From Olivibacter domesticus (GTDB lineage Bacteria > Bacteroidota > Bacteroidia > Sphingobacteriales > Sphingobacteriaceae): a DNA stretch of 64,000 nt. The stretch covers positions 963,662-1,027,661 of the forward strand of contig NZ_FOAF01000001.1 of the NCBI RefSeq assembly GCF_900109575.1, read 5' to 3'. Of the stretch, positions 17,593 to 44,656 are shown piece after piece (the stretch's first letter is position 1; the number at the start of each line of letters is the position of its first letter). A program made the translations under genes and the position numbers. The notes under the pieces are model-generated. The model saw nothing but the letters and a program-made list of their open reading frames with translations, did no database searches and was not told the DNA's origin.

Positions 17593-20500
17593 ATGAAGAG
17601 TACAAAGTTGATTGGTATCACCCCTTTCGAGATTCCTGATCTTGTTTTACTTAATGCGTTAAGCAAAACAGGAATTTTCCCAGTTCTACATATGGGAAAT
17701 GATTCAGATCAAAAAGAGCATTTATTTAAAGAAATAAGTAACTACCCTCCGAAATCAATAGGCATTTGTTTTGGACAAACCGATATATCAGATCCGCTGT
17801 TACCCGAAGCAGTCGGCTTAGTCATCATTCCTTTTGGAAATACAATCAATGTCAATTCAAATGTAACAGAAGTTATTTATCAAGTACACACATATGATGA
17901 GGCGCTGGCAGCAAAAGAATCGGGAGCTAAAACCGTTATCATAAAGGGTAACGAGGCTGGCGGTAAAATTGGAAATGATTCTACATTTATCTTGTTCCAG
18001 CGAGTTATCCAAAATGCAACTTTAAGAGAAATGGATATTTGGGTTCAAGGAGGTGTGGGAATTCACTCCGCCGCCGCGCTGATTGCTCTTGGAGCCGAAG
18101 GATTGGTCTTAGATAACCAATTTGCTTTGTTTCCGGAATGCAGTGCTCCTAATCCACTAAAAAATATTATTGAAAAACTAAACGGTAACGAAACGAAAGC
18201 AATCGGCGGACACAGAGTCTTAGTTAGACCTAATTCACCCATTTTACCCGGAGAACCTACCTATGAGAATCTGCGCCCTTATTTAATGGGTAACTATAAT
18301 TTAGAAAACTCTTACCTCAGTGTTGGCCAAGACATTACATTATCAAAAGATTTAGTTAAGAAGTACAAAACGCTTGATCGTTTCTCATTTGGTCTATTAG
18401 AGGCTATTGCTGGTCATATAAAACAAGCGCAGTATGAAAATGTTATTCGCCCAGAAAATTCCTTAGCAAAAGAATTAAACATCAAATATCCAATTGCTCA
18501 AGGCCCTATGACGCGGGTTAGTGATGTACCAGCTTTCGCTAAGGCTGTATCAGATGCGGGCGCACTTCCTTTTATTGCACTGTCATTAATGACTGGGAAT
18601 AAAGCAAAAGAGTTAGTTCATACAACACACGCGTTGTTAGAAGGCAAAACGTGGGGGGTTGGAATTTTGGGTTTTGCTCCACAAGAATTGAGGGAGGAAC
18701 AAACACAATATATTATGGAAGTTAAACCGCCAGTAGTACTGATAGCTGGTGGAAGACCTTCGCAAGCTATTTCCTTCGAAAAAGCTGGCATAAAAACTTT
18801 TCTACATGTTCCTTCCTTATCGCTTTTGGATATATTCATTAAAGAAGGGGCTAAAAAATTTATTTTTGAAGGTAGAGAATGCGGAGGACATGTAGGTCCA
18901 TTGTCTTCATTGGTATTATGGGAGCAACAGATTGAGCGGATTTTACAAGAAGAGAACTTACCTGCCTTCGAAATGTTCTTTGCTGGTGGTATTCATGATA
19001 GCCTTTCCAGCGCATTCGTATCTATCATGACTGCACCATTAGCTACCGCTGGAGCTAAAATTGGGGTACTAATGGGTTCTGCCTATATCTATACCAAAGA
19101 GGCTATTGATTCGGGTGCTATTTTACCAGGTTTTCAAAAACAAGCGCTAGAACAAGCAGAAACTGTATTACTAGAAACTGCCCCAGGCCATGAAACGAGG
19201 TGCCTACATTCACCATTCACTTCTTTTTTTAAAGAAGAAAAATCAAGATTACAAAATAATGGTGTTGAAAAGCAAGAAATATGGAAATCTTTAGAACAGC
19301 TTAATGTGGGACGTTTACGTATTGCAAGTAAGGGTTTGGAAAGAAATCAAGATACGCTAGTAAATGTAAGCGAAAAAGATCAGTACCAGCACGGAATGTA
19401 CATGATAGGCCAGGTTGCTGCACTTAATAACGCTGTTCAAACGATGGATCAGCTTCACAAAGATGTTGCTTACAACAATTATAAACACATAACGAATGTA
19501 AATACCTCTACTTTGCAAGTAAAATCAGCTAAAGAGGCACTGGATATTGCCATCATTGGGATGGCATGCGTCTATCCAGATGCCCAAGATCTAGATGCAT
19601 TTTGGCACAATGTCCTTGCCTCAAAAAATTGCATAACAGAGGTCCCAGATGAGAGATGGAATAAAGAAATATATTATGATCCAAATGATAGTAATGGTAA
19701 GAAATCACCTTCTAAATGGGGTGGATTTATTCCTCAAATAGATTTTGATCCACTTGAATTTGGAATACCACCTCAATCGCTAGCAGCTATAGATCCTACG
19801 CAATTATTGAGCCTACTTACAGCAAAAAGGGCGCTGGAAGATGCAGGATATGCGTCTAATCAAGTAGATAAAGAAAATATATCGGTAATTATCGGTGCTG
19901 AAGGAGGAAATGATTTAGCGAATAACTATAGTTTTAGAGCTCTTTTTCCGCAAATGTTTGGGGAAATACCAAAAGAAGTAGATGATGCTCTTCCAAAATT
20001 AACGGAAGATTCCTTTCCGGGCGTATTGGCAAATGTGATAGCTGGTCGTATTACGAATCGATTGGATTTAGGTGGTCGCAATTATACGGTAGATGCCGCC
20101 TGTGCCTCCTCCCTAGCAGCTGTTGATTTAGCATGTCAGGAGTTAATCCTTAAAAAATCGGACATGGTAATTGCAGGAGCGGCTGACCTTCATAATGGTA
20201 TCAATGATTACCTGATGTTTGCAAGTACGCATGCGCTATCTAAAAAAGGTAGGTGTGCAACATTCGATGCAGAGGCCGATGGTATTGCCCTCGGTGAAGG
20301 TGTAGCAATGATCGTCCTCAAAAGACTGGAGGATGCACAAAAAGATAATGACAAAATATATGCTGTCATAAAAGGAGTCGGTGGCTCTAGTGATGGAAAA
20401 AGCTTGGGACTTACGGCGCCTAGATTATCAGGGCAAACAAAAGCTTTAGAAAGAGCATATGAACAAGCGGGCGTTTCTCCATCTGCTGTGGGTTTGATAG

Positions 20501-23500
20501 AAGCACACGGAACAGGAACTGTGGTAGGAGATCGTACGGAGTTAAGTGCTTTAACGCAGACAATGATTCAAAGTGGAGCAGTTAGAGGGCAGACACATCT
20601 AGGGTCAGTAAAAACACAAATAGGCCATACGAAATGTGCCGCAGGTATGGCCGGTCTAATTAAAAGTGCGCTGAGTGTGTACCATGGAATCAAACCACCA
20701 ACGATTAATTTAAGACAACCAAATGGCTATTATAAAGAAACAAACAGCCCTTTTGTATTTACTGATAAAGCCGGTTTATGGAATGAACAGGAGAGAATTG
20801 CTGGGGTAAGCGCTTTCGGATTTGGTGGAACTAATTTCCATGCACTTATTTCAAACGTCAAAGAAAAGAGTGATAATGTATTTTCTGCGACTAAACAATG
20901 GCCCGCCGAGCTCTTTGTGTTTAGAGGACATGATTTCTCTGAAGCATCCCTCCTACTTCAGCAGGTTAAAAAATTAATAGATTTAAATGATACAATAAAA
21001 TTAAGAGATATCGCTTTTTCTTTGACTACTTATAGTAAAGCTCCTATACAGTTTACTATATTAGCTGAGTCCATAGATGACCTTATCTTTAAAATGGATC
21101 TGGTACTTTCTGGTACCCATACAAAAGACACTTATCATACCCAACCAGTTACAGGAAAAACGGCCTTTTTATTTGCCGGACAAGGGAGTCAGCGCATCCA
21201 TATGGCTAGAGAGCTGATGGTCAACTTCCCTAAAATGCGGTCAATTCTCAAACTATATCCAGAATACGAAAATGTGCTTTTCCCTAATCAGACATTTGAC
21301 GAAGAAGCACTACAAAATCAAAAAACGGCAATAAAGGATACCCGGATGGCTCAACCATTATTGGGTATTGTTGATTTAGCAATTGCTAGATTTTTGGAAG
21401 ACCTTGGTATCATTCCTGACATGTTAGCTGGCCATAGTTATGGTGAATTACCCGCTTTAGCTTTTTCGGGTGTTTTTGATGATCAATATCTTGTACCAAT
21501 GAGTAAACAGCGAGCCGAGTCTATTCTATCTTCATTAGCTGAGGATAAAGGTATGATGGTTGCCGTTAATGGTAACAAACCCTTAATCGACGGCTTAACA
21601 GAAACTAGAGGAAATGTTTTTGCTGTAAATCACAATTCTCCTCAACAATGGGTGCTTGCAGGGACCTCAGCGGCCATGAATGACCTTATAAAAGAACTAA
21701 AAGATAAGAAAATATCTTACCGGCAATTGGAGGTTGCTTGTGCTTTCCATAGTCCTTTAATTGAAGGGGCTGCTCATAGTTACTATCAATCAATTGAATC
21801 AATACCATTTAATAAGCCAACTATAGCAGTTTGGTCAAACACCACAGCAGCGCTTTATCCCATAGACGGTCAAGCGATCAAAGAAACACTTGCAAATCAT
21901 ATCATTAAACCAGTACATTTTTCTGATGAAGTGGAAGCTATGTATAATGATGGCGCACGTGTATTCATAGAAGTAGGGCCAGGAAAAACGCTTATAGGAC
22001 TTGTAAAATCAATCTTAGGTAAGGATGAAGTGCTATTGCATACAGAAGAAAATGGAAAAGGTGGAATCTTACAGCTATTAACGATGATAGCACAGTATAT
22101 TGCTACAGGAAGATCAGTTAATTTAGAAGCATTATTTACCGATAGAGATGTTCGAACCATTGATTTTAATCATCCGGAAAAATATAAAAGAAGCGCATCT
22201 ACTTGGTTAGTAAATGGCCAAATGGCAATGCCTTTAAAAGGAAAATTACCTTCTTACAGCGTGCCGCCTGTTGTAAAACCCATACTTAACTTTAATCAAT
22301 TGAATGCGGTACAAGGTGGCGCTTCACAAGCCCCTTCTTCAATACCAGGAACGGCAGAACAAATGACGTTAGAATACTTATCAAGTATGAAGTTGTTGAT
22401 TCAGGCGCAGCGTGATGTATTACTTGCTTATCTGGGGCATAATATTTCTCCTATGGCCAACCCAAGTGATGTAACCCCATTACGCACTGAGGCAAAGAAA
22501 AGTACTCCTGTTGTAGAAGCGAAGACTTCAGAAATAATGCCAGAATCGCCAAACAACATTGTGATCGATTTGACAACCATTTTATTGGACGTAGTAAGTG
22601 ATAAGACCGGATATCCAAAAGAAATGTTAGGTATGGATTTAGACTTAGAGGCAGATTTGAGTATTGATTCAATTAAGCGACTGGAAATTATTGGAGAGTT
22701 ACGTGTGCAATTGAGTTCTGCTGAATTTAAGGGCAAAACGCAAGATGAAATGGTAGAGCAGTTGGCCTCCATCAAAACTCTAAATGGTTTGTTAAATTGG
22801 TTCAATGAAAACCTTGAAATACAGAAAGAACCTAAAATATCTCAAGAAACTACAGTAGTTAACGCACAACAAGCATTGTTGTCAGAACAAGATATTCGCG
22901 ACATCTTACTCGAAATTGTAAGTGAAAAAACTGGTTATCCTCAAGAAATGCTAGGTATGGACCTGGACTTAGAAGCTGATTTAAGTATTGACTCCATCAA
23001 ACGGATAGAAATAATTGGTGAACTTCGGAATAAGCTTGACAACGTGCTTCCTCTTAACGAAGAGGGGCATGCAAACATAGAACAACTCTCCTCTTTTAAA
23101 ACCTTACAGCATTTAGTTCAATGGATAGTTACTAATAGCGATAGCAAAGGTAGCACTTCTTCCCTAATGGCAATTGAAGCAATGGATGATATTGCCATTA
23201 ATGAGCATTTGAAGCGAATAAAATTTGAATTGGTAGATATCCACGCTGCATTACAGCATGATAACCCAACTTCATTTATGGGGCACAAGCTGGCTATTAC
23301 AAGAGACGGGAGCTTAGGAGAGGTAATAAAAAAAGCGCTGGAAAAAGAAGGAGCTATTGTTGATGTTATTAATCAGGAAGCAAATTTAGAGGCTTATGAT
23401 GGATTAATTATTTTAGATATGGTTGCATCTAATCATCGTCTGAGTATTATCGAAGCTGTCCAAATGGTAAAATCCTTAGATATGCAGCGGGTGAAATGGG

Positions 23501-24606
23501 TGTATGTGCTGTCAGACCATTCTGCTCATGTTGATAAAAATGATGATCCAAAATTTTTAAGAAGCTATCAAGGATATACGGGATTCATTAAAAGCTTGGA
23601 TAAAGAATATGAACATACAAAGTGTAGAACCGTTCATTTTATGAATGAATTAGATGAAATAAAAATTTCAGATTTATTACGCAAAGAAATGCTTTGCAAC
23701 GATGAGCCATCCGTTATTTATTATAAAAACGAGCAACGGCATACTATTCAAGAAGCCCATCATCCATTACTTACTGAAAATCAAGAAGCTTTAATGCTTG
23801 ACAAAGAAGCAGTAATCTTGGTATTGGGTGGTGCTCAAGGGATAACCTCTGCTCTCACCACGCATTTATCAAAAGAATATCCTTGTCATTATGTATTAGT
23901 TGGTAGGTCCGTTTATCCAGATGTAAAGGGCATACCACCAGATGTAAAAACCAAAGAAGATATTAGAAAGTTTCTCATTAGTCAAGCATACTCTAAATCG
24001 CCAGCTGAAATTGAACAAAAGACATCTCAACTTTACAAGGCAATGCAAATTGTTTCCACAATGGAAACCATTAAATCGCAAGGTGCACGGGTAAGTTATC
24101 ATACCGTCGATGTGAGAGATGAAGAAAAACTTATTCAACTTATACAAACATTATACGCTAAATATGGGCGAATAGATGGCGTCATTCATGGTGCAGGTAT
24201 TTTAGAAGACAAATTATTCCAAAATAAAACACCTGACTCTTTTGAACGCGTATTTTCTACAAAAGTTACGCCACTTCGCGTCTTAGCTGAACATTTAAAG
24301 GTTGATACCAAATTCATTGTCTTCTTTTCGAGTATCGCATCTGTTTACGGTAACCGCGGTCAAACTGACTATGCAGCGGCAAACAGTGTATTAGATCATT
24401 ATGCCGAAGTGTTAAGAAAAAAGATGAAAGGAAGGGTAACCGCTATCAATTGGGGGCCTTGGAAAGGTGCAGGTATGGTCTCTGCAAGTCTAGAAAAAGA
24501 ATATGAACGAAGAGGAATATCCTTAATTCCTTTAGAAAGTGGAAAAGAAACTTTTGCCAATGAAATTAAGTATGGGAACGAAAGCAGAGTTTTAATTATG
24601 GCTTAA
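17593..24606 (+). CDS. PUFA-synthase-like iterative lipid/polyketide synthase, ER-ER-KS-AT-ACP-ACP-KR
   Basis: This 2337-residue megasynthase opens with two nitropropane-dioxygenase-like domains (about 1-290, with KGNEAGGKIG at 118-127, and 294-560, with FEGRECGGHVG at 425-435). This is the flavin-dependent enoyl-reductase type found as PfaD in PUFA synthases. A ketosynthase follows (about 650-1110, Cys837 in DAACASS, His in EAHGTGT and GHTKCAAG), then an acyltransferase (about 1185-1490, Ser1282 in GHSYGE). Two ACPs carry LSIDSIKR with carrier serines 1693 and 1801, and a ketoreductase closes the chain (about 2070-2310, GGAQGIT, SSIASVYGNRGQTDYAAAN). All catalytic residues look intact. It heads an operon with the next two genes. 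PfaA-like KS and ACP motifs place it among secondary lipid synthases; the product is unknown. Confidence 0.93.
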   Translation: MKSTKLIGITPFEIPDLVLLNALSKTGIFPVLHMGNDSDQKEHLFKEISNYPPKSIGICFGQTDISDPLLPEAVGLVIIPFGNTINVNSNVTEVIYQVHTYDEALAAKESGAKTVIIKGNEAGGKIGNDSTFILFQRVIQNATLREMDIWVQGGVGIHSAAALIALGAEGLVLDNQFALFPECSAPNPLKNIIEKLNGNETKAIGGHRVLVRPNSPILPGEPTYENLRPYLMGNYNLENSYLSVGQDITLSKDLVKKYKTLDRFSFGLLEAIAGHIKQAQYENVIRPENSLAKELNIKYPIAQGPMTRVSDVPAFAKAVSDAGALPFIALSLMTGNKAKELVHTTHALLEGKTWGVGILGFAPQELREEQTQYIMEVKPPVVLIAGGRPSQAISFEKAGIKTFLHVPSLSLLDIFIKEGAKKFIFEGRECGGHVGPLSSLVLWEQQIERILQEENLPAFEMFFAGGIHDSLSSAFVSIMTAPLATAGAKIGVLMGSAYIYTKEAIDSGAILPGFQKQALEQAETVLLETAPGHETRCLHSPFTSFFKEEKSRLQNNGVEKQEIWKSLEQLNVGRLRIASKGLERNQDTLVNVSEKDQYQHGMYMIGQVAALNNAVQTMDQLHKDVAYNNYKHITNVNTSTLQVKSAKEALDIAIIGMACVYPDAQDLDAFWHNVLASKNCITEVPDERWNKEIYYDPNDSNGKKSPSKWGGFIPQIDFDPLEFGIPPQSLAAIDPTQLLSLLTAKRALEDAGYASNQVDKENISVIIGAEGGNDLANNYSFRALFPQMFGEIPKEVDDALPKLTEDSFPGVLANVIAGRITNRLDLGGRNYTVDAACASSLAAVDLACQELILKKSDMVIAGAADLHNGINDYLMFASTHALSKKGRCATFDAEADGIALGEGVAMIVLKRLEDAQKDNDKIYAVIKGVGGSSDGKSLGLTAPRLSGQTKALERAYEQAGVSPSAVGLIEAHGTGTVVGDRTELSALTQTMIQSGAVRGQTHLGSVKTQIGHTKCAAGMAGLIKSALSVYHGIKPPTINLRQPNGYYKETNSPFVFTDKAGLWNEQERIAGVSAFGFGGTNFHALISNVKEKSDNVFSATKQWPAELFVFRGHDFSEASLLLQQVKKLIDLNDTIKLRDIAFSLTTYSKAPIQFTILAESIDDLIFKMDLVLSGTHTKDTYHTQPVTGKTAFLFAGQGSQRIHMARELMVNFPKMRSILKLYPEYENVLFPNQTFDEEALQNQKTAIKDTRMAQPLLGIVDLAIARFLEDLGIIPDMLAGHSYGELPALAFSGVFDDQYLVPMSKQRAESILSSLAEDKGMMVAVNGNKPLIDGLTETRGNVFAVNHNSPQQWVLAGTSAAMNDLIKELKDKKISYRQLEVACAFHSPLIEGAAHSYYQSIESIPFNKPTIAVWSNTTAALYPIDGQAIKETLANHIIKPVHFSDEVEAMYNDGARVFIEVGPGKTLIGLVKSILGKDEVLLHTEENGKGGILQLLTMIAQYIATGRSVNLEALFTDRDVRTIDFNHPEKYKRSASTWLVNGQMAMPLKGKLPSYSVPPVVKPILNFNQLNAVQGGASQAPSSIPGTAEQMTLEYLSSMKLLIQAQRDVLLAYLGHNISPMANPSDVTPLRTEAKKSTPVVEAKTSEIMPESPNNIVIDLTTILLDVVSDKTGYPKEMLGMDLDLEADLSIDSIKRLEIIGELRVQLSSAEFKGKTQDEMVEQLASIKTLNGLLNWFNENLEIQKEPKISQETTVVNAQQALLSEQDIRDILLEIVSEKTGYPQEMLGMDLDLEADLSIDSIKRIEIIGELRNKLDNVLPLNEEGHANIEQLSSFKTLQHLVQWIVTNSDSKGSTSSLMAIEAMDDIAINEHLKRIKFELVDIHAALQHDNPTSFMGHKLAITRDGSLGEVIKKALEKEGAIVDVINQEANLEAYDGLIILDMVASNHRLSIIEAVQMVKSLDMQRVKWVYVLSDHSAHVDKNDDPKFLRSYQGYTGFIKSLDKEYEHTKCRTVHFMNELDEIKISDLLRKEMLCNDEPSVIYYKNEQRHTIQEAHHPLLTENQEALMLDKEAVILVLGGAQGITSALTTHLSKEYPCHYVLVGRSVYPDVKGIPPDVKTKEDIRKFLISQAYSKSPAEIEQKTSQLYKAMQIVSTMETIKSQGARVSYHTVDVRDEEKLIQLIQTLYAKYGRIDGVIHGAGILEDKLFQNKTPDSFERVFSTKVTPLRVLAEHLKVDTKFIVFFSSIASVYGNRGQTDYAAANSVLDHYAEVLRKKMKGRVTAINWGPWKGAGMVSASLEKEYERRGISLIPLESGKETFANEIKYGNESRVLIMA

Positions 24607-24624
24607 TTCAGAAAAGAACAGACA

Positions 24625-27600
24625 ATGACGAAGGACATAGCAATTATTGGAATGTCGGCCATATTTCCTGGAGCTCCAAATGTACAAACCTACTGGGAAA
24701 ACATACTTAATAAAATAGATGCTGTTAAAGAAGTACCGGCTAACAGGATTGATAGCCGGTATTTTGGGGCCCATATAGCTACCGTAGATAGATTTTATTG
24801 CGATAAAGGTGGCTTTATTGATGATTATGCGCGCTTTGATCCAGTTGCTTTTGGCATTTTGCCATTAGCAGTTGAAGGTATGGAACCGGATCAATTGCTT
24901 ACTTTACAGTTAGCCCATCAAGCTTTGGAAGATGCAGGTGTTTGGAATAAAAGATATTCGCTTGATAATACTTCTATTATTATAGGAAAAGGCAATTATG
25001 TTGGTCCAGGAGCGACAAGAGCTGTGGAGGTTGTGCACGTATCTGAGCAAATGATAGAGGTGTTAAGAAATCTTATGCCTCACCTGAGTGAGGAAGAACT
25101 TGACAAGGTAAAAAAAGAGTTTCAATCGAAAAAGGGGCGCTTTACTCCAGACACAGCGATGGGGCTGATACCCAATTTAGTCGCATCATTGGTAGCTAAC
25201 CGCCTGAATCTAGGTGGTGCAGCATATACTGTTGATGCCGCTTGTGCCAGCTCATTGTTAGCAATAGACCATGCGGTAAATGAATTGATCTCTGGTCGTG
25301 CGGACATGGCGATAGCTGGTGGTGTACACGTAGCTCAAAATGCAACCTTTTGGAGTATCTTCAATCAGTTAGGAGCGCTATCCAAAAAACAACAAAGCAG
25401 ACCATTTGATGAGGAGGCTGATGGGTTAATCATTGGAGAGGGTTGCGGATTTGTGGTGCTAAAGACGCTGGAAAAAGCGCAGCAAGATCTCGACAGAATT
25501 TATTGTGTTATTAAGGGAGTAGGTATAAGCAGCGATGGTTCGGGTACAAGTGTCATGAGCCCATCAGTTAAAGGACAAGCTAAAGCAATTGAACAAGCAT
25601 TAAGAAATGCTGAAATATCACCAAATGACGTGGGCTATATTGAAGCACATGGAACAGCCACACCGCTAGGTGACCGTACAGAATTAGAGACTTTAAAACA
25701 AGTCTTTGGAACATATCAGAGTGGGTTAAAAGCAAAAATAGGTAGTGTAAAATCAATGATAGGCCATACTATGCCTGCAGCGGGTGTTGCAGGTGTAATT
25801 AAAACGGCTCTTGCTCTTTACCATGATATATTACCTCCTACACTACATTGCGACTCACCCATCGAAACAATGATGAGTACGCGCTTCGAGCCCTCTCTTA
25901 AACCAATTGCATGGTCGGAAAGCGGATTACCCCTCGTGGCAGGTGTAAATGCGTTTGGCTTTGGAGGAATTAATGCACATATTGTGCTAAAGGCTTATCC
26001 ACAGCAAACAAAAATTGCATCCAAGCCAGCAACAACTTCCGTACTACCTGAAGAAAAACTCCTTTTATTAGCACGCACTAACGTAGAAGAATTGGTAGCA
26101 GCTTTGAAAGTACAGGATACTACACTAGGTGAAGGAAGCCACAGGATTGCTATTTTTAACCCTACAGAAGATAGGATAAAAAAGGCAATAAATATTGTAA
26201 AAAAAGGCAAACCATGGCGTAATCGCCAAGATATTTGGTTTAGCAATGAGCCACTCTTGAGTGATAATGGAAAGATCGCATTTCTATTTCCTGGCCTTGA
26301 TGGATTATCATCAGGTGAGACAGACAGTATTGTTCACTATTTTGGAATTGAAAAGGAATTTTTGCTAGACAACTCGATGGAGGAGGCAAACGTACTAGGC
26401 TCTGCTTTAAGTCAGCTACATAATAGTAGAGTAATAGATTTGGCGTTAAAAAAATTGGGAGTATTACCTGATTTAAATGCGGGACATAGTATGGGTGAAT
26501 GGCTCGCGGGTATGTCGGCGGGGCTCGTAACCACAGAATCAGTCAAAACACTAGTCGAAAATTTAGATCCTCGATCTTTTGAAATATCTGACGCACAATT
26601 TATTGCAGTGGGTTGTAGTTATGAACGAATCAGTAACCTGCTAAGCGTGATACCGAATCTCTACCTAGCCAATGATAACTGTCCTCAACAAGTTATTTTA
26701 TGCGGGAGTCATGTAGCAATACAAGAGCTTACGCATCAGCTTAAACAAGACCAAATCTTTCATCAGGTCCTTCCATTTCAATCAGGGTTCCACACACCAT
26801 TTATTAAGGATAAGGTTCCACAGTTACTTTTGGGAATAAATGAAATTGAATTTTTAAAAAATAAAGTACCAATATGGTCTGCTACCACTTTATCTCCTTA
26901 TCCAACAAATGTGGACGAAATCCGTGCACTCACCGTTGAGCACCTAATACAGCCTGTTAGATTTAGAGAACTTATTGAAAAGTTACACCAGGAGGAAGAC
27001 GTTAAAATTTTCTTGCAGATTGGATCAGGAGGAGTGACTGGTTTTGTAGACGATATTTTAAAAGGTAAAGCATATAATGCATTTGCGGCTAATTCTCCTC
27101 ATAGAAATGGTTTGGCGCAATTAAAAAGGGTGCTTGCTTTATTGTATGTTGAAGGCAAAGAAGTAGATCTGGATTTCTTAGGAGTATCTAAAAAGCAAAA
27201 ACTGGACTCCAGTATACAGCTCCAATTGGGTTCTTCACTCGTAACCGATTGGAAATTTTCACTCCCCCTTTTAGCACATCAACCTGAAAAGAAACAGAAC
27301 AGAAGTAGTTTACTGTCTGCTGAACAGGTGAAAAATCCTTTGGCGAAAGCGGTAGTTGAAAATATGGAAGAAGCCATTGGAATGTATTCAGAGCTTATCA
27401 CTATTTTAGAAGAGAGCGCTGTTCAATCAGGTAATTCTATACATAAAGAATATCGAGACACGCAGAAAGAGACGGTTATAATATCGTCTGAACCGCAAGT
27501 AATGTACGCCCCACTCTCTGTTTCTCTAGCAACACACCCCTACTTAATAGATCACGCATTAGTAAAACAAAAGAAAGGATGGCATTGCCCCGAGGATATG

Positions 27601-28941
27601 GATCCTGTTATTCCAATGACAATGATTTTTGAATTATTTGGAGAAATAGCTGAGTCATATGCTGAAGGAAAGATCTTAAATAAAATACAAGATATCAGAG
27701 TGTTCCAATGGATGAATGTAAGTAAGCCATTCAAAGAATCTGTAGAGGTGCGATGGATGGGTGCCGATAAACTCTCACTTAGTATCCAAAAATACGCTGA
27801 ATTAATCGCTATTGTTGATGCAAATCGGAGTGTTGCTCCGCCTATCCAGCCCTTAGATATTGGAAAGCCACTAAACATTTCTATTGAAGCCAAAAGCATC
27901 TATGATCGCCATATGTTTCATGGACCTGCCTATCAAGGTATACGGTCTATATTAAGTATTTCTGATAAAGGAATAAGAGGAATGATTTCTGGGAATGGAG
28001 GAAAAGGTTCCTTACTGGATAATGCCGGACAATTATTTGGACTTTGGTTACAATTAACTTTGCCTATCAATCGTGTAGCATTTCCCGTTAAGATAGATGA
28101 AATTACTTTTTATCAAGATTTCCACGATCAAACTGGTGTCTTTGAATGCACCTGTATGCTAACGGATTTAAATAGTGAAACCGCTACTGCAAATTTTCTG
28201 CTGACTAGAAATGGAAAATTATGGGCCTCTATTCATGGATGGCAGAATATTCGTTTGGAATTTGACGAGCGTTTATGGCAAGTTTCTATGGCCCCAAAAA
28301 GTAATATTCTCTCGGATGAAATATCCCCAGGGGTATTTAAATTTCATAAAGCCTACCAGAAAGTTATCTCTTGGGATTTTATTGCTAAACGTTATTTACC
28401 ACTTGACGATAGAAATTACTTACAGGAAATGCCGCTTAACAAAAGGAAAAAATGGCTAATAAGTCGCGTAGCAGTACGGGATGCCATTCGCTCTTTACTT
28501 CTAAAAGAAAAAAATGAAGCTCATTTTCCTATAGAATTTAATCTTGGAAAGTTGTCAAGTGGCCAACCAATAGTTAAAGGCGAAAATAAAGAAAATATTC
28601 ATATTTCTATAGCCCATAAAAATGATGAGGCAGTTGGAATTGCAAGTATGGGCAAACCCGTTGGGATAGACATAGAAGAAATTAAAGAAAGAGGTAGTGG
28701 TTTCGATGAAATTGCGCTAACACATGCCGAGCAACTATTGCTAAAAGGCAGATTACATGATGAGTGGGTAACACGTTTTTGGGTAGCGAAAGAAGCGTAC
28801 GGAAAATATTTAGGTAAAGGACTGCAAGGAAACCCAAAGAAATATCAGGTAAGCGCTGTAAATGGAAATGATCTATTAATAGAAGGCATTAAAATAAAAA
28901 CTATTAAACATAACAATTATATTATAGGATGGACACTTTAG
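24625..28941 (+). CDS. PUFA-synthase-like lipid/polyketide synthase, KS-AT-DH-PPTase
   Basis: This 1438-residue partner synthase lies 18 bases after the first. Its ketosynthase (4-455) has Cys207 in DAACASS and both histidines (EAHGTAT, GHTMPAAG). It is thus a full KS rather than a chain-length factor. An acyltransferase-like domain (about 545-860) has Ser622 in GHSMGE, but the usual FPGQG entry motif is FPGLDG. A double-hotdog dehydratase (about 960-1215) has His977 in HPYLIDH and Asp1132 in LLDNAGQ. A C-terminal Sfp-type phosphopantetheinyl transferase (about 1270-1438) has GIDIEE (1347-1352) and WVAKEAYGKY (1386-1395) and would activate the ACPs in cis or in the complex. Together with the first protein, the system holds every activity for full beta-carbon reduction. 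Confidence 0.93.
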   Translation: MTKDIAIIGMSAIFPGAPNVQTYWENILNKIDAVKEVPANRIDSRYFGAHIATVDRFYCDKGGFIDDYARFDPVAFGILPLAVEGMEPDQLLTLQLAHQALEDAGVWNKRYSLDNTSIIIGKGNYVGPGATRAVEVVHVSEQMIEVLRNLMPHLSEEELDKVKKEFQSKKGRFTPDTAMGLIPNLVASLVANRLNLGGAAYTVDAACASSLLAIDHAVNELISGRADMAIAGGVHVAQNATFWSIFNQLGALSKKQQSRPFDEEADGLIIGEGCGFVVLKTLEKAQQDLDRIYCVIKGVGISSDGSGTSVMSPSVKGQAKAIEQALRNAEISPNDVGYIEAHGTATPLGDRTELETLKQVFGTYQSGLKAKIGSVKSMIGHTMPAAGVAGVIKTALALYHDILPPTLHCDSPIETMMSTRFEPSLKPIAWSESGLPLVAGVNAFGFGGINAHIVLKAYPQQTKIASKPATTSVLPEEKLLLLARTNVEELVAALKVQDTTLGEGSHRIAIFNPTEDRIKKAINIVKKGKPWRNRQDIWFSNEPLLSDNGKIAFLFPGLDGLSSGETDSIVHYFGIEKEFLLDNSMEEANVLGSALSQLHNSRVIDLALKKLGVLPDLNAGHSMGEWLAGMSAGLVTTESVKTLVENLDPRSFEISDAQFIAVGCSYERISNLLSVIPNLYLANDNCPQQVILCGSHVAIQELTHQLKQDQIFHQVLPFQSGFHTPFIKDKVPQLLLGINEIEFLKNKVPIWSATTLSPYPTNVDEIRALTVEHLIQPVRFRELIEKLHQEEDVKIFLQIGSGGVTGFVDDILKGKAYNAFAANSPHRNGLAQLKRVLALLYVEGKEVDLDFLGVSKKQKLDSSIQLQLGSSLVTDWKFSLPLLAHQPEKKQNRSSLLSAEQVKNPLAKAVVENMEEAIGMYSELITILEESAVQSGNSIHKEYRDTQKETVIISSEPQVMYAPLSVSLATHPYLIDHALVKQKKGWHCPEDMDPVIPMTMIFELFGEIAESYAEGKILNKIQDIRVFQWMNVSKPFKESVEVRWMGADKLSLSIQKYAELIAIVDANRSVAPPIQPLDIGKPLNISIEAKSIYDRHMFHGPAYQGIRSILSISDKGIRGMISGNGGKGSLLDNAGQLFGLWLQLTLPINRVAFPVKIDEITFYQDFHDQTGVFECTCMLTDLNSETATANFLLTRNGKLWASIHGWQNIRLEFDERLWQVSMAPKSNILSDEISPGVFKFHKAYQKVISWDFIAKRYLPLDDRNYLQEMPLNKRKKWLISRVAVRDAIRSLLLKEKNEAHFPIEFNLGKLSSGQPIVKGENKENIHISIAHKNDEAVGIASMGKPVGIDIEEIKERGSGFDEIALTHAEQLLLKGRLHDEWVTRFWVAKEAYGKYLGKGLQGNPKKYQVSAVNGNDLLIEGIKIKTIKHNNYIIGWTL

Positions 28942-29231
28942 TAAATAACAGTAATGAAATTCAAAGTATATTTTTGACACTTAAACAATTCATTACGGAA
29001 ATTATAGGGGAAGAATTTGTGGAAGAAATGGATATTACAATAGACAGTTCTTTTACAAAGGATTTAGAAATGGATAGTATTGAGATAGTTTCATTTTCTG
29101 AAAAGGTAAAAAACTACTTTGGCGAAGAAATAGATTTCACCGGTTGGCTTTCTAGCTTGGATCTTGATCAATTAATAGATTTGAATTTAAAAGACATTAT
29201 ACAATACATACTTTCGAATCAGAATAAATAA
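28929..29231 (+). CDS. Free-standing acyl carrier protein of the megasynthase operon
   Basis: This 100-residue acidic, helical protein has the carrier motif DLEMDSIEIV; Ser50 would carry phosphopantetheine. Its start overlaps the end of the preceding gene by 13 bases, so it is translationally coupled and belongs to the same complex. Having a discrete ACP besides two in-line ACPs suggests a handover step: loading of a starter, release to an external acyltransferase, or presentation to a tailoring enzyme such as the nearby desaturase. A terminator hairpin follows. Confidence 0.9.
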   Translation: MDTLVNNSNEIQSIFLTLKQFITEIIGEEFVEEMDITIDSSFTKDLEMDSIEIVSFSEKVKNYFGEEIDFTGWLSSLDLDQLIDLNLKDIIQYILSNQNK

Positions 29232-29741: not shown

Positions 29742-31193
29742 ATGTTAAAAAGTAAGTCTTTCGTACTCATCACCCTCATGATGGCTACTTCCATGGCAGC
29801 AATAGACAGTAGTATCGTAAATGTTTCTTTACCCGTAATGAGGAGTGACTTTCAAGTAGAGTTAAATCAAATTGAGTGGGTAGTCACCGCCTATATGATT
29901 TCCTTTTCACTTTTCATTCCATTGACAAATTGGTTAAAAAAACGTTTTGGATACTATCACCTTTTTTTGGGAAGCATTTTAATATTTACAATTGGCTCTT
30001 TAATGTGTAGCATATCTCCTACACTTGACCTACTAGTCATTTCCAGAATTATACAGGCTATTGGCGGTGGAGCATTGTCTCCTACTTCGTTAGCTATATT
30101 AAGCGAAACCTATCCTAAAGAAGAACGTGGTACGGCCATTGGTTGGTGGGGAATGGGTAATGTTATGGGGCCAGCACTTGGTCCTACTTTAGGAGGAATA
30201 CTTACCCATTTCCTTGGCTGGCAATCGATATTTTATATAAACATCCCCATAGGTATCCTTACAATTATATTTACAGTTAAATACCTAGGATTTCTTAAAA
30301 AGAAGTTTGATACGGCCAGTAAGTTTGACTTTAAAGGATTTGTTTATTTCTCCTTATTTATTATTGTATTGCAGTATACAATATCGATTATTAGTAAACA
30401 GGGATTCTTTTCGTTGTATTTTTTTATAGGATTGATCGTTTCTGTGCTAACGCTAACCCTATTTATAAGATCGTCAAAACGTCCACAATCGCTTTTAGAT
30501 TTAAACGTTTTTAAAATATTCCAATTTAATATCGCGGCCGCAATAACAATTATTCGCTCATTGGCCTTGTATGGCGGCATGTTTTTTCTCCCTTTTCTGC
30601 TCCAAGGCTTACTTGGTTATTCTGAAATTGAGTCTGGTTTACTCATGTTGCCAAATGCCTTGATAATGCTTATAAGTAGACCCATATCTGGACGATTGGC
30701 CGATAAGGGACTAATAAGATACATTTCCATCACTGGAATTATAATAATTTCGTTTTCTTTTTTTCTATTTTCCCGCATTGACATTGGGGTATCTATTTGG
30801 TTTATCATTATTACAATGCTTTTTAGAGGTCTTGGGATGAGCTTATTAGTCGCACCGGTATCAACTGCGTTATTAAATGCAGTGACACCTTCACAAACAC
30901 AAACAGCTACAGCCTTAAGTAGTCTTTTTTTGCAAGTAGGCGGTTCTATTGGTATTGCAATAAGTGCTGTTATTCATACTTTTATCTATGATCGTTATCT
31001 AGGCCAGGGGTATGAAATTAAAGTAGCAGAACATTTTGCATTACAAAACAGTTTTCTAATTACGGCGATTATTATCTTGTTAGCTGTCATTCCTGCCTTT
31101 AAGTTACCCCAACGTTCTAAAATTGCTTATCTACGGGAAAAACTTAAACATAGAATCGACAAAAAGAACATGGAAAACACTTTAGAAATATAA
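29742..31193 (+). CDS. DHA2-type (EmrB/QacA) major facilitator exporter, 14 TM
   Basis: This 483-residue integral membrane proton antiporter has the DHA2 pattern: motif D1 at the N-terminus (MAAIDSSIVNVSLPVMRSDF), WVVTAYMISFSLFIPLTNWL, and motif C in TM5 (GNVMGPALGPTLGGILTHFLGWQSIFYINIPIG). Relatives export drugs, dyes or lipids. Its position between the lipid synthase operon and a lipid desaturase suggests, but does not prove, export of the product. No EmrA-type membrane fusion partner or outer-membrane factor is adjacent. A palindrome sits directly before the start. Confidence 0.92.
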   Translation: MLKSKSFVLITLMMATSMAAIDSSIVNVSLPVMRSDFQVELNQIEWVVTAYMISFSLFIPLTNWLKKRFGYYHLFLGSILIFTIGSLMCSISPTLDLLVISRIIQAIGGGALSPTSLAILSETYPKEERGTAIGWWGMGNVMGPALGPTLGGILTHFLGWQSIFYINIPIGILTIIFTVKYLGFLKKKFDTASKFDFKGFVYFSLFIIVLQYTISIISKQGFFSLYFFIGLIVSVLTLTLFIRSSKRPQSLLDLNVFKIFQFNIAAAITIIRSLALYGGMFFLPFLLQGLLGYSEIESGLLMLPNALIMLISRPISGRLADKGLIRYISITGIIIISFSFFLFSRIDIGVSIWFIIITMLFRGLGMSLLVAPVSTALLNAVTPSQTQTATALSSLFLQVGGSIGIAISAVIHTFIYDRYLGQGYEIKVAEHFALQNSFLITAIIILLAVIPAFKLPQRSKIAYLREKLKHRIDKKNMENTLEI

Positions 31194-31387: not shown

Positions 31388-32356
31388 ATGAGTAAGAAAA
31401 AAAGCTTCAGCTGGTCTGAACAATGTGAACCGCACAAGCTACGCACAAAAGAAATAATCTCCCAGCATCCTGAGATACGCCAGTTAATCGGTAAGAATCC
31501 ATATACTTTTCTTGTCATCTTGTTGTGCGTAGGTATACAGATTGGAATGTCTTGGATTTTGTACGATGAAAGTTGGTGGTTCATATTCCCTTGTGCATAT
31601 TTAGTTGGAGCCTTTGCTTGCCATACTCTTTTTATTTGTATTCATGAATGTTCACATAACCTTATTTTTAAAAATCGTACATTAAATACTATCTCAGGAA
31701 TAATTGCCAACCTGCCATTGGTATTTCCGAGTTCTGTATCCTTTCAAAAGTATCATTTAAAACATCATGCTTTTCAGGGAATAGAGGAGTTGGACGCAGA
31801 TATGCCAAGCGAATGGGAGGCTCGATTGGTGAACAATTCATCTTTAGGAAAAGCACTATGGTTATTGTTTTATCCTATTGTTCAAGCATTAAGGCTCCAC
31901 CGAATGAGCAAAGAAATCAAAATGTTTGATAAATGGCTTGTGGTAAATTATTTAGTCCAACTAGTATTCGTTGCTTTTATATTTTATTTTTTGAAATGGA
32001 AAGCTATTGTTTATTTGCTAGCTAGTTTTTTCTTTTCGGTAGGGCTACACCCGCTAGGTGCACGTTGGATACAAGAGCATTTTCTTACACATGATGAAGA
32101 ACAGGAAACAAAAAGTTATTATGGCGTGCTGAATACAGTTAATTTAAATGTAGGCTATCATAATGAACATCATGATTTTCCATCCATTCCTTGGAATAAT
32201 TTGCCAAAAATTAAGAAAATTGCTGGTCAACATTATACTTCTTTAGGTTATCATAGCTCATATACAAAATTACTCTTCAGATTTTTGTTTGACAGGAGAT
32301 TATCGTTATATTCTCGTGTTGCCCGAAATAATCGTGGAAAAACTAAAATGTCTTAA
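31388..32356 (+). CDS. Membrane fatty-acid desaturase closely resembling sphingolipid delta-4 desaturase (DES1)
   Basis: This 322-residue membrane di-iron enzyme has three histidine boxes: HECSH (86-90), HLKHH (123-127) and HNEHH (258-262). The similarity goes well past the boxes. The N-terminus has the Lipid_DES pattern (FSWSEQCEPHKLRTKEIISQ, then HPEIRQLI). The middle has IIANLPLVFPSSVSFQKYHL, GLHPLGARWIQEHF and YYGVLNTVNLNVGYHNEHHD, and the C-terminus LSLYSRVARN. Human DEGS1, as I recall it, reads nearly the same at these places. DES1 enzymes put the 4,5 double bond into dihydroceramide. Bacteroidota of this kind make dihydrosphingolipids, so a sphingoid substrate is plausible; the megasynthase product is the alternative. 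The gene is a single unit with its own promoter. Confidence 0.88.
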   Translation: MSKKKSFSWSEQCEPHKLRTKEIISQHPEIRQLIGKNPYTFLVILLCVGIQIGMSWILYDESWWFIFPCAYLVGAFACHTLFICIHECSHNLIFKNRTLNTISGIIANLPLVFPSSVSFQKYHLKHHAFQGIEELDADMPSEWEARLVNNSSLGKALWLLFYPIVQALRLHRMSKEIKMFDKWLVVNYLVQLVFVAFIFYFLKWKAIVYLLASFFFSVGLHPLGARWIQEHFLTHDEEQETKSYYGVLNTVNLNVGYHNEHHDFPSIPWNNLPKIKKIAGQHYTSLGYHSSYTKLLFRFLFDRRLSLYSRVARNNRGKTKMS

Positions 32357-40654: not shown

Positions 40655-40714
40655 TGTACTTTATCGATTAAAGACAAAGCTATGATTTTTTATTGTTTCA
40701 CAATAGTTTTTGTA

Positions 40715-41254: not shown

Positions 41255-41322
41255 GTTTTCATATAACTAGCTGATAATCCAACATATCAGTAAAATAATT
41301 GTTTTATTTTTTTACTATTCCT

Positions 41323-42818: not shown

Positions 42819-43349
42819 TCAATTTCGTTCTACAGCATTGACATATTCTTCCAAAATAGTATTAATTTGTTTGACACTAACTAGCGTAAAATAAGCAGCC
42901 AATGAGCAGGCTAAAATCCCATTTATACAGGCCAGTAGCAAACCATTGAAAGTGCTCTCAGCTGGCAATAACCACTGTACCACCAGCATAATAATCAAAA
43001 TAGCAAGAAATGTTTTTAAACCATTATAAACACCTTCACGCAAAAAAAAACGCATATTTACTTGCTCATCGTCCCATAATTTCCCTAGGTTGGCTGTGGT
43101 AAAAAATTCAGTGATTTTTTTCATAAAATCAACTGTAATGGCTAATGGTACAAATAATGCCATTGGTAATATAAATCTGGCAAAACAAAACTCCCCTTCA
43201 AATAACGAAACTGCTGTGGGGTTTTCAAAACTAAAATAGGGTATTATCCCATTAAATAACAGATTAGGAACCAAATACCAAAAAAGCTTCCTTTTGAGAA
43301 AGGCTTTTGCTGGTTTATAATCAGTAATAGTTTTAATCTGGTCTATCAT
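42819..43349 (-). CDS. Hypothetical membrane protein, 176 aa, end of glycolipid operon
   Basis: It has four predicted hydrophobic segments (around residues 24-40, 58-75, 114-130 and 136-158), a basic N-terminal end and no signal peptide. I recognise no family. It is the last gene of the minus-strand operon, 17 bases after the second acyltransferase gene. It could be a scaffold, a transporter part or a membrane anchor for the lipid-modifying enzymes; this rests on context only. Confidence 0.7.
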   Translation of the reverse strand: MIDQIKTITDYKPAKAFLKRKLFWYLVPNLLFNGIIPYFSFENPTAVSLFEGEFCFARFILPMALFVPLAITVDFMKKITEFFTTANLGKLWDDEQVNMRFFLREGVYNGLKTFLAILIIMLVVQWLLPAESTFNGLLLACINGILACSLAAYFTLVSVKQINTILEEYVNAVERN

Positions 43350-43366
43350 TACGTACTAGTGCAATT

Positions 43367-44650
43367 TTAATTTTCTAATAGATCCTGATGTATGATTGAC
43401 CTTAACGTCTCAAAAGTAGTTTTAATAAAAACGTTTGCTTCCTTTTCTGCCATTATTGCCTCATTAGACATAAATGTTAAGTCCAGAATACCTTTATAAG
43501 AACTAATCACAATTGTATTGGGGTTGCGCCATGGAAATGACACTGACGGACTATAAATAGATTGTACCTCAAACGTATTAAATGTTTCTTGTATAGCTAA
43601 ACTGCCCATATTAGAAAATGTAAAATCATGTGTACCATCTTTCGTAAGAAGGTGGTTTATAAGCTTCGGAACTATTTTTTGAAATCCCTCGCTCATTTCT
43701 AGAATTTCAGCAATATTGATCTTTTTGATTCCACGGTTGATTTCTTCTTTCATTTTTTTAGCTGATGGCCAAATAGCATCTAAATTCCTTTTGTCTAAGT
43801 TCAATTCAATAATTGGAGCAAAAGCAAAAAGTTGATCTTCTTCTATGTCAGTTAAAAATTTTCGTATATCAATTGGACATATTAATTTCCCTTTAAATTT
43901 CTCAGGAAAGAGATTAAAGTACGTCTTTAGTAAAGATACACCCACTACCGTATACAATGAAGCACCTTGTGATTTACACAACCTAAGTATTTTTTTTGTC
44001 TCCCCAGCTTCTAAACGGTGATGTATCATGTAAGACAATTCCGGTTTTAATAATTTTTTTTGATTTACTTTGCTCGGTAACAAAATATTCGCCAGTCCCT
44101 TACCAACATAACCTTTAAGGGATAAATTCAATTTTTTCCAGCCAGAAAGTGCTATAGGAGAAGATAACTTTTCTATGAACGGCTGGCCTTCCAAATGGTG
44201 TTGTGGATCATCAATAAGTAAGAGTAATTCTCTTAAAAGAGTAGTCATGCTTGTTCCATCAGCAATGCAATGGGGGCAAACGAGTATAATTTCAGAAATC
44301 TCATCTCCTTTCACCCAAATAAGTCTTGCCAAAGGTCCGCTGACCACATCGAAAAATGATTGCCATTGCATTTTAGAAATAATCTGCCAGTACGCATCAT
44401 CCTTTCTTTTATGTTCGATTATTGGAATAGGTTCAATCTCATTTTTAAGCATGAAATAGGGTTTCGTGTCCTGTTCGCAAACGATCGATCTTAAAAGAGG
44501 ATGTTTTTTCTGAAGTTTTTCTAAGGCCGCACTAAGTATAGGTCGGGATAATTCTCCTCTAATGCTTACAGTAAATAAACAATTGACGGATTGATGTTTA
44601 CCGACATACATTATTCGCTCACCAACAGAAAGTGCTCTTTGCTTCGTCAT
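43367..44650 (-). CDS. Condensation-superfamily acyltransferase (PapA-like), second copy
   Basis: This 427-residue CoA-dependent acyltransferase fold resembles PapA5 and NRPS condensation domains. The active-site motif reads PHCIADG (catalytic His127, structural Asp131): the first His of HHxxxDG is Pro, but the catalytic one is kept. A C-terminal DFTFSNMGS and LDLTFMSNEAIM correspond to the DFGWG-like and late motifs of the superfamily. Such enzymes transfer acyl chains from carrier proteins or CoA to hydroxyls. It is the likely partner or paralogue of the next gene upstream, six bases away, and suggests that two different hydroxyls, or two acyl donors, are used. Confidence 0.82.
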   Translation of the reverse strand: MTKQRALSVGERIMYVGKHQSVNCLFTVSIRGELSRPILSAALEKLQKKHPLLRSIVCEQDTKPYFMLKNEIEPIPIIEHKRKDDAYWQIISKMQWQSFFDVVSGPLARLIWVKGDEISEIILVCPHCIADGTSMTTLLRELLLLIDDPQHHLEGQPFIEKLSSPIALSGWKKLNLSLKGYVGKGLANILLPSKVNQKKLLKPELSYMIHHRLEAGETKKILRLCKSQGASLYTVVGVSLLKTYFNLFPEKFKGKLICPIDIRKFLTDIEEDQLFAFAPIIELNLDKRNLDAIWPSAKKMKEEINRGIKKINIAEILEMSEGFQKIVPKLINHLLTKDGTHDFTFSNMGSLAIQETFNTFEVQSIYSPSVSFPWRNPNTIVISSYKGILDLTFMSNEAIMAEKEANVFIKTTFETLRSIIHQDLLEN

Positions 44651-44656
44651 CGTTAT

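What the first reader, a model, noticed from the sequence alone, without database searches (positions are those of the whole stretch)
17593..29231. Compact PUFA-synthase-like lipid megasynthase with both enoyl-reductase domains fused at the N-terminus
The operon encodes NPD-NPD-KS-AT-ACP-ACP-KR, then KS-AT-DH-PPTase, then a free ACP. Classical marine Pfa systems have five or more tandem ACPs in PfaA, the ER as a separate PfaD, a KS-CLF pair in PfaC and a standalone PPTase. Here the ER type is at the N-terminus and doubled, only two in-line ACPs are present, and the PPTase is fused to the DH protein. All visible catalytic residues are intact. It should make a reduced, long-chain lipid of unknown length and saturation, a candidate new class of secondary lipid in Bacteroidota.
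Basis: partly seen in the sequence, partly recalled or inferred. Interest (0 to 1): 0.85.

Follow-up and report, generated by a model that had tools for sequence, protein, structure and literature searches.

The report
Long-chain glycolipid synthase, widespread in Bacteroidota
A soil-type bacterium carries a large fatty-acid assembly line that resembles a kind first listed in 2011; its relatives keep it next to sugar- and acyl-attaching enzymes, so it probably makes an acylated glycolipid whose structure is still unknown.

Summary
Three genes at 17593-29231 encode NPD-NPD-KS-AT-ACP-ACP-KR, KS-AT-DH-PPTase and a free ACP. The novelty claimed for the layout does not hold: Beijerinckia indica, a published carrier of the Azotobacter-type (Type P) synthase, and two Streptomyces plasmids have the same SYN1 domain order, and genera plus PPTase motifs match the published 'Type N' synthase. 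NPD1 is not an intact enoyl reductase: the catalytic His is Lys here and kept in 1 of 78 aligned relatives; NPD2 keeps it in 78 of 78.

The more informative result lies outside the coordinates. In 76 of 80 named Bacteroidota loci the synthase continues in one gene row with an alpha/beta hydrolase, two GT1 glycosyltransferases and two PapA5-like acyltransferases. The other four: two cut by contig ends, one with a split acyltransferase, one Olivibacter. In this window (Olivibacter by kinship) that half lies on the opposite strand at 42819-49151. Among 201 family genomes the same 15 carry both halves. Two Streptomyces plasmids hold the first five genes.

Best reading: a very-long-chain hydroxy-fatty-acid glycolipid, acylated on its sugars. 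Glycosylation and acylation are inferred from gene content. I found no reported product.

The parts
17593..24606 (+). SYN1: NPD1-NPD2-KS1-AT1-ACP-ACP-KR, 2337 aa
17593..18447 (+). NPD1: FabK-like TIM-barrel domain that lacks the catalytic His (K125); probable pseudo-ER; borders approximate
18448..19512 (+). NPD2: FabK-like FMN enoyl reductase, H433 in motif RECGGHVG, kept in 78 of 78 aligned homologs; borders approximate
19543..20712 (+). KS1 (C837, H972, H1012 intact)
21166..22011 (+). AT1 (S1282, H1386)
22570..23091 (+). two in-line ACPs (S1693, S1801); borders approximate
23809..24465 (+). KR (S2247, Y2260, K2207)
24625..28941 (+). SYN2: KS2-AT2-DH-PPTase, 1438 aa; KS2 is an intact KS, not a CLF
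27502..28254 (+). DH double hotdog (H977, D1132); borders approximate
28402..28938 (+). PPTase domain, motifs P1a (SGQP) and P1b' (ISIAH), no P0 seen; borders approximate
28929..29231 (+). free ACP (S50)
48375..49151 (-). ABH: alpha/beta hydrolase, thioesterase-like (S96, H233), first gene of the second half
47167..48378 (-). GTa: GT1/MGT-type glycosyltransferase
45966..47156 (-). GTb: GT1/MGT-type glycosyltransferase (nearest solved: YjiC)
44657..45943 (-). ATa: condensation/PapA-type acyltransferase, HHxxxDG intact
43367..44650 (-). ATb: condensation/PapA-type acyltransferase, second His and Asp of HHxxxDG intact; nearest solved PapA5
42819..43349 (-). TM: 176-aa, mostly helical, probably membrane-bound protein of unknown fold; detected in 65 of 80 loci
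29742..31193 (+). EmrB-like MFS exporter that follows the synthase in the window and, after one opposite-strand ORF, in O. jilunii (L044); not seen in the other 79 loci within the fetched flanks; possible lineage-specific exporter
31388..32356 (+). fatty-acid desaturase/DES family, next to the MFS in the window and in O. jilunii; link to the pathway uncertain

Best explanation
This is the core of a nine-gene glycolipid pathway, split in two in Olivibacter. SYN1, SYN2 and the free ACP form an iterative type I fatty-acid/polyketide synthase. The PPTase domain charges the ACPs, AT1 loads malonyl units, KS1 and KS2 extend the chain, and KR, DH and the FMN-dependent NPD2 reduce it; NPD1 is a non-catalytic partner that completes an ER pseudo-dimer. 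The chain is probably longer than C20, saturated or nearly so, and keeps at least one hydroxyl. GTa and GTb then glycosylate the hydroxyl(s), the alpha/beta hydrolase releases or lactonises the chain, and the PapA-like ATa and ATb put acyl groups on free hydroxyls of the sugar. Shown by sequence: domains, active sites, conserved gene order, co-occurrence. Inferred: order of steps, chain length, sugars, acyl groups, role of NPD1 and of the membrane protein.
For: All eight genes SYN1-SYN2-ACP-ABH-GTa-GTb-ATa-ATb are distinct and co-directional in 76 of 80 named loci. The other four: L044 (O. jilunii, split like the window), L077 (ATa in two ORFs), L080 (contig begins inside SYN2, the rest present), L103 (contig ends in ABH). 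TM is detected in 65 of 80. Of 201 family genomes the same 15 have SYN1 and ATa; GTb is in those 15 plus one weak partial match. In Olivibacter 2 of 5 genomes have both halves, 3 neither. Two Streptomyces plasmids carry SYN1-SYN2-ACP-hydrolase-GT-methyltransferase in that order; in the one compared, the first five are homologous. GTs hit UDPGT (over Pfam's cut-off) and MGT models; ATs hit Condensation over Pfam's cut-off, and ATb's best solved relative is PapA5. Tested residues of KS, AT, ACP, KR, DH, PPTase and NPD2 are invariant in 78 (SYN1) and 79 (SYN2) homologs. KS1 groups with Streptomyces (100/99), then Type P (96/91), apart from PfaA-type rows.
Against: No product has been measured. 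The GT matches to NCBIfam's MGT model (160 and 196 bits, cut-off 260) and the AT matches to PapA5 models are under the curated cut-offs, so exact substrates cannot be named. GT1 enzymes also glycosylate carotenoids, macrolides and other acceptors (my own knowledge). PapA-like enzymes may acylate something other than the sugar. In the window the two halves are about 13.6 kb apart on opposite strands. The 15 co-occurring genomes fall in 4 of 25 genera, so they are not 15 independent events. A tight row could mean co-inheritance after horizontal transfer rather than one pathway, though order is kept across several families and in part in Streptomyces. TM was not detected in any of the 9 Dyadobacter loci and has no fold match.
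Confidence: 0.74

Rival explanations
1. One reading: a stand-alone lipid synthase that makes a reduced long-chain fatty acid, without sugars; the GT/AT genes in the window belong to another pathway.
For: In the window the GT/AT half is on the other strand and separated from the synthase by other genes.
Against: In 76 of 80 loci the two halves form one co-directional gene row; at E<=1e-30, presence and absence of SYN1's NPD region and of ATa agree in the 201 family genomes searched and in 5 of 5 Olivibacter genomes. The sister species has the same split, so the separation looks like one rearrangement in the Olivibacter lineage.
Confidence: 0.1
2. A polyunsaturated fatty acid (EPA/DHA/ARA-like) synthase.
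For: Best NCBIfam model of SYN1 is PfaA, 1004.1 bits.
Against: The score is under the curated cut-off of 1010.1. No CLF, one recognised DH instead of the PfaC pair, two in-line ACPs, and a FabK-like ER: no PfaD among the 12 solved relatives of NPD2 at E<=0.001, and PfaD first at rank 45 by fold. KS1 and KS2 lie outside the clades of the PfaA-type and PfaC-type rows (those labels are mine).
Confidence: 0.05
3. A macrocyclic glycolipid of the cycloviracin/fattiviracin/glucolipsin type: the hydrolase acts as a macrolactonising thioesterase that joins the carboxyl of one glycosylated chain to a sugar of another, and ATa/ATb add further acyl groups.
For: Actinobacteria make macrodilactones of glucosylated long-chain (C22-C33) trihydroxy acids, in cycloviracin with methylated sugars (PMC4365757 section 11, passages read). 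The Streptomyces relatives pair the synthase with an alpha/beta hydrolase, one GT and one methyltransferase.
Against: No title or abstract listed links a gene cluster of this kind to these compounds. No methyltransferase belongs to the conserved eight-gene row. The chemistry of the hydrolase cannot be read from its fold.
Confidence: 0.22
4. A resting-cell (microcyst) lipid like the Azotobacter cyst phenolic lipids, as suggested for Type N in Chitinophaga.
For: Shulse and Allen propose it for Chitinophaga pinensis (PMC3098273 section 7); Type P is the nearest clade in the tree with a known product.
Against: No type III PKS is among the eight genes of the row or the 30 window proteins scanned with Pfam (ORFs beyond the row in the relatives were not scanned). 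The cluster is also in Pedobacter and Chryseobacterium; that Chryseobacterium gleum is not known to make differentiated cells is from the paper, for Pedobacter it is my own knowledge.
Confidence: 0.12

Closest known systems
Type N secondary lipid synthase (Shulse and Allen 2011: Chitinophaga pinensis DSM 2588, Chryseobacterium gleum ATCC 35910)
   Same: Other species of the same two genera carry the cluster found here; PPTase motif class P1a + P1b' as reported for Types M-T.
   Different: The domain figure of the paper is not held, and the two named strains are not among the 80 loci, so identity is inferred. The section that describes Type N does not mention glycosyltransferases or acyltransferases.
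Type M secondary lipid synthase (Actinomycetota: Frankia, Streptomyces avermitilis, Renibacterium)
   Same: Two Streptomyces plasmids carry SYN1 (38% identity over the full length), SYN2, ACP, hydrolase and GT in the same order; KS1 and KS2 are both sister to the window's clade. A 2026 paper describes fused pfaDA and pfaBC-PPTase genes resembling those of Renibacterium (PMC13291983, passages).
   Different: One GT and a methyltransferase instead of two GTs and two PapA-like acyltransferases. That these plasmid loci are Type M is my inference.
Type P / Ars synthase of Azotobacter vinelandii and Beijerinckia indica (C22-C26 chains of phenolic lipids)
   Same: Beijerinckia indica pBIND02 has NPD1-NPD2-KS-AT-ACPs-KR and a DH-PPTase protein; its NPD1 also lacks the catalytic His. 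A glycosyltransferase gene also follows its DH-PPTase gene (its type was not tested).
   Different: No second KS-AT in the DH-PPTase protein; two genes annotated as 3-oxoacyl-ACP synthase III-like, which I take for the type III PKSs of the paper; KS1 48% identical and in a separate clade.
PfaA-PfaE omega-3 PUFA synthase
   Same: Iterative KS-AT-ACPs-KR core; PfaA is the best NCBIfam model.
   Different: No CLF, no DH pair, no PfaD, two in-line ACPs, fused FabK-like ER, PPTase fused; under the PfaA cut-off.
PapA5 and other mycobacterial polyketide-associated acyltransferases
   Same: HHxxxDG active site; PapA5 is the closest solved structure to ATb by sequence.
   Different: Low similarity, far under NCBIfam's PapA5 cut-off; donor and acceptor unknown.
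Thraustochytrid PUFA synthase ERb/ERc heterodimer
   Same: Two TIM-barrel ER domains acting as a pair (PMC13311796, passages read).
   Different: There both keep the catalytic His; here NPD1 lost it and both sit in one chain.

Membership tests
PfaA-type PUFA synthase (TIGR02813) | score over the curated cut-off of 1010.1 bits | tested here: not met
   1004.1 bits
PfaA-type PUFA synthase (TIGR02813) | 4-6 tandem ACPs in PfaA | tested here: not met
   two in-line ACP serines; paper's definition
PfaA-type PUFA synthase (TIGR02813) | PfaC = KS-CLF-DH-DH | tested here: not met
   SYN2 has one intact KS, AT, one recognised DH, PPTase; no CLF
PfaA-type PUFA synthase (TIGR02813) | separate PfaD-type ER | tested here: not met
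   ER is N-terminal in SYN1 and FabK-like
Type N secondary lipid synthase | PPTase with motifs P1a and P1b' and no P0 | tested here: met
   SGQP and ISIAH read; no hRxhLS seen by eye; definitions. P1b' is shared by Types M-T, so it is not specific to N
Type N secondary lipid synthase | found in Chitinophaga and Chryseobacterium | tested here: met
   several species of both genera among the 80 loci; the two named strains themselves not tested
Type N secondary lipid synthase | domain order of the published Figure 1 | not testable with these tools
   figures are not held in the library
Type P / Ars synthase | NPD-NPD-KS-AT-ACPs-KR protein | tested here: met
   compared with Beijerinckia, not with Azotobacter itself
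Type P / Ars synthase | partner type III PKS genes | tested here: not met
   none among the eight genes of the row or the 30 window proteins scanned with Pfam
Type P / Ars synthase | KS inside the Type P clade | tested here: not met
   separate clade
PapA-type acyltransferase (ATa, ATb) | HHxxxDG catalytic motif | tested here: met
   ATa fully; ATb keeps the second His and Asp, first His is Pro
PapA-type acyltransferase (ATa, ATb) | score over NCBIfam's PapA5 cut-off (396 bits) | tested here: not met
   22.7 and 34.1 bits
FMN enoyl reductase FabK/PfaD (NPD2) | catalytic His of motif III | tested here: met
   H433, 78 of 78 homologs
FMN enoyl reductase FabK/PfaD (NPD1) | catalytic His of motif III | tested here: not met
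   K125; His in 1 of 78 homologs
Cycloviracin/fattiviracin glycolipids | macrodilactone of glycosylated long-chain trihydroxy acids | not testable with these tools
   needs isolation of the product

The most novel reading that the evidence does not exclude
The cluster and its Streptomyces relatives form one shared family of pathways for very-long-chain polyhydroxy-acid glycolipids that spans Bacteroidota and Actinomycetota. The Actinomycetota branch would make cycloviracin/fattiviracin-type macrodiolides. The Bacteroidota branch would make a doubly glycosylated form, further acylated by PapA-type enzymes as in mycobacterial surface lipids. Its enoyl reduction would run on a one-chain pseudo-dimer of a dead and a live FabK-like domain.
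Probability: 0.25. Interest if true: 0.75.

Novelty: new member of a known kind. Interest (0 to 1): 0.5.

Why it matters
Type N was listed in 2011 with an unknown product. Tying the synthase to two glycosyltransferases and two PapA-like acyltransferases in 76 of 80 loci gives a definite, testable product class (an acylated glycolipid) for a cluster that occurs in Pedobacter, Chitinophaga, Mucilaginibacter, Dyadobacter, Chryseobacterium, Flavobacterium, Sphingobacterium and others. The dead NPD1 beside a live NPD2, shared with Beijerinckia (Type P), Methylosinus and Streptomyces, offers a simple question about how FMN enoyl reductases are built into megasynthases.

Tried and rejected
Architecture as the novelty: rejected once Beijerinckia, Methylosinus and Streptomyces showed the same SYN1 order. 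PUFA synthase: rejected. CLF in SYN2: rejected, the KS2 triad is intact in the window and in 79 of 79 homologs. Defence-system reading of ATa, ATb and TM: no PADLOC match at E<=0.01. Fold of the TM protein: AF2 model pLDDT 83, no PDB match at E<=0.001. A function for the desaturase at 31388-32356 in the pathway: left open. Promoter scan of 28800-49500: not done (asked for too long a stretch and was not repeated).

Paper searches in whose listings I saw no product for this cluster. Several listings were capped (15 of 92, 20 of 24, 15 of 71, 10 of 14). Only open-licence PMC papers are held, so absence there proves little; the Azotobacter ArsA/ArsD papers and the fattiviracin papers were not read. 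Passages of PMC11804610 (hgl islands called close to PUFA-type PKSs of some Bacteroidetes) and PMC12964715 added no product.

Limits of counts. The genome scan kept 80 of 212 confirmed relatives. The SYN1 active-site table used 78 homologs: L059, whose ORF is split in two, and L080, whose contig begins inside SYN2, fell out by the length limit; SYN2 used 79 (L080 left out). My first presence count (SYN1 79, ACP 76, GTa 77, GTb 76) missed genes hidden by antisense ORFs. The tblastn count (SYN1 80, GTs and ATs 78) let one gene match two queries, so that SYN1 in L080 and ATa in L077 were cross-matches; the strict recount, which asks for distinct places, gives 76 of 80 and replaces it. This lowers an earlier figure of 78 in my draft; it does not change my odds, because the four misses are two contig ends, one split ORF and the Olivibacter split. 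In one search the stretches were cut at different points, so the ATs and TM were seen there only in part. The KS tree used 11 of the 80 loci, and its Type P, M, O, Q and Pfa row labels are mine; its tool warned of long branches, among them the Rhodobacteraceae KS, whose placement (90/64) I do not rely on.

Full report
What was checked. The three ORFs exist at the stated positions and their translations carry the stated domains. NCBIfam's best model for SYN1 is PfaA at 1004.1 bits, just under its cut-off of 1010.1. The NPD region has one match in the window's genome, and the other PfaA-model matches outside the window are short single-domain pieces, so the cluster is single-copy. With the NPD region as query, 2 of 5 genomes of the genus have it, 15 of 201 of the family, and 4 of 395 drawn from the phylum, the window's own included.

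Residues. Against 78 SYN1 and 79 SYN2 homologs, every tested catalytic residue of KS1, AT1, both ACPs, KR, KS2, AT2, DH, PPTase and NPD2 is invariant. The exception is NPD1. The motif that carries the proposed catalytic His in FabK and PfaD (motif III, xEAGGH; PMC13311796, passages read) reads NEAGGK in the window, and 1 of 78 homologs has His there; NPD2 reads RECGGHVG in all 79 rows including the window. HMMER aligns the window Lys to the FabK His directly. Beijerinckia (EAGGQ), Methylosinus (EAGGR) and Streptomyces (ECGGR) also lack it. AlphaFold2 on an alignment of 24 sequences predicts the two domains together with pLDDT 85.6 and pTM 0.90; the best fold matches are FabK structures, PfaD first at rank 45. 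I read this as an inherited pseudo-ER plus ER pair; the structural role of NPD1 is inference.

Relatives and gene context. I compared 17 orthologous stretches. In 16 of 17 the synthase is followed directly by homologs of window genes that lie some 13.6 kb further on, on the minus strand (42819-49151). In the window those genes are an alpha/beta hydrolase, two MGT-type GT1 glycosyltransferases and two condensation/PapA-type acyltransferases, then a 176-aa protein with no Pfam match. The 17 stretches were cut at different points, so a named set followed: 212 confirmed relatives, 80 kept. A strict recount asks for SYN1 with its NPD part, SYN2, ACP, hydrolase, two distinct GTs and two distinct ATs: 76 of 80 have all eight, all on one strand. 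The four others are O. jilunii (L044), L077 (its ATa is in two ORFs), L080 (contig begins inside SYN2; the rest of the row is there) and L103 (contig ends in the hydrolase). The 176-aa protein is detected in 65 of 80. O. jilunii carries the second half about 20 kb away, convergent with the synthase, in the same gene order as the window, so both Olivibacter genomes share one split.

Co-occurrence. In the 201 family genomes, ATa (E<=1e-30) is found in exactly the 15 that carry the SYN1 NPD region; GTb is found in those 15 and as one weak partial match in another. The 15 belong to 4 of 25 genera, so they are not independent, but within Olivibacter the match is also 2 with both and 3 with neither.

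Other phyla. A tblastn of SYN1 against 72,556 plasmids gave 743 records at E<=1e-30, 3 of them with one place covering at least 80% of the query. Two Streptomyces plasmids have SYN1-SYN2-ACP-hydrolase-GT-methyltransferase by annotation; in NBC_01243 the first five were compared and are homologous (the ACP only at 21% identity). Beijerinckia indica pBIND02, named as a Type P carrier by Shulse and Allen, has NPD1-NPD2-KS-AT-ACPs-KR, two genes annotated as 3-oxoacyl-ACP synthase III-like (taken here for type III PKSs), a DH-PPTase protein, a glycosyltransferase and an ABC exporter. A KS tree of 43 rows puts window KS1 with 11 other Bacteroidota rows (100/100), then Streptomyces (100/99), then in a group with Type P (96/91) that is sister to the rows I label PfaA-type; KS2 groups with Streptomyces KS2 (100/99) away from the PfaC-type rows.

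What is known. Shulse and Allen 2011 (PMC3098273; sections 6 and 7 read whole, abstract and passages of others) list Type N in Chitinophaga pinensis and Chryseobacterium gleum with unknown product and suggest a role in resting cells. Their Types M-T share PPTase motif P1b', which the window PPTase also has. A 2026 paper (PMC13291983, passages) describes fused pfaDA and pfaBC-PPTase genes in Flavobacterium/Aquimarina NRPS hybrids, resembling Renibacterium. A Chryseobacterium description (PMC10459008, passages) reports an antiSMASH hglE-KS/T1PKS region without similarity to known clusters; whether it is this cluster was not tested. So the layout is not new.

Mechanism. Carrier loading, elongation and reduction follow from the domains. 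That the chain keeps a hydroxyl is inferred from two GT1 enzymes in the same gene row. That acyl groups are added is inferred from two PapA-type enzymes; ATb's nearest solved relative is PapA5 (1.9e-12), though both ATs score far under NCBIfam's PapA5 cut-off. Release by the hydrolase is inferred from its place right after the ACP. The comparison with cycloviracin/fattiviracin rests on their published chemistry (PMC4365757 section 11, passages: glucosylated long-chain trihydroxy acids, methylated sugars in cycloviracin, from actinomycetes) and on the methyltransferase in the Streptomyces loci; no gene link was seen in the listings. An analogy with fungal mannosylerythritol lipid clusters (a glycosyltransferase, acyltransferases and an exporter) is recalled, apart from one abstract in the listing.

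Verdict. The useful result is a concrete product hypothesis for Type N-like synthases, with the missing half of the pathway located in the window.

Noticed in passing
window 42819-49151 versus 17593-29231: The pathway is split and convergent in the window and in O. jilunii, while 76 of 80 named loci keep it as one row: a lineage-specific rearrangement.
   Followed up: yes
window 15320-16147 (-): Protein of the aminoglycoside/hydroxyurea phosphotransferase family (APH_6_hur) near the synthase.
   Followed up: no
window 40091-42672 (-): Amino-acid permease, small methyltransferase and a 187-aa protein follow the GT/AT genes in the window and in O. jilunii; link to the pathway unknown.
   Followed up: partly
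G000:C12:135751-136977: A further condensation-type acyltransferase (32% identical to ATa) elsewhere in the genome, and a similar one in O. jilunii (G001:C4, 31%); its neighbours have no homolog in the window.
   Followed up: partly
L083, L097, L105, L106, L108, L109, L111 and others: GTa and GTb are fused into one protein of about 800 aa in Chryseobacterium, Flavobacterium and Sphingobacterium loci, which suggests the two transferases act together.
   Followed up: partly
KS tree: Chryseobacterium, Flavobacterium and Sphingobacterium KS rows group together against their taxonomy, which points to horizontal transfer within Bacteroidota.
   Followed up: no
L052 and L053 (Pedobacter panaciterrae O48, one contig): Two clusters of identical gene lengths about 92 kb apart on one contig in opposite orientation: recent duplication or assembly artefact.
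   Followed up: no
Dyadobacter loci L048, L050, L055, L059, L062, L064, L072, L075, L091: No TM gene detected and three condensation-type acyltransferases instead of two.
   Followed up: no
L059, L077 and L101: SYN1 of Dyadobacter frigoris and ATa of two Pedobacter loci are each split into two ORFs; sequencing error or decay not resolved.
   Followed up: no
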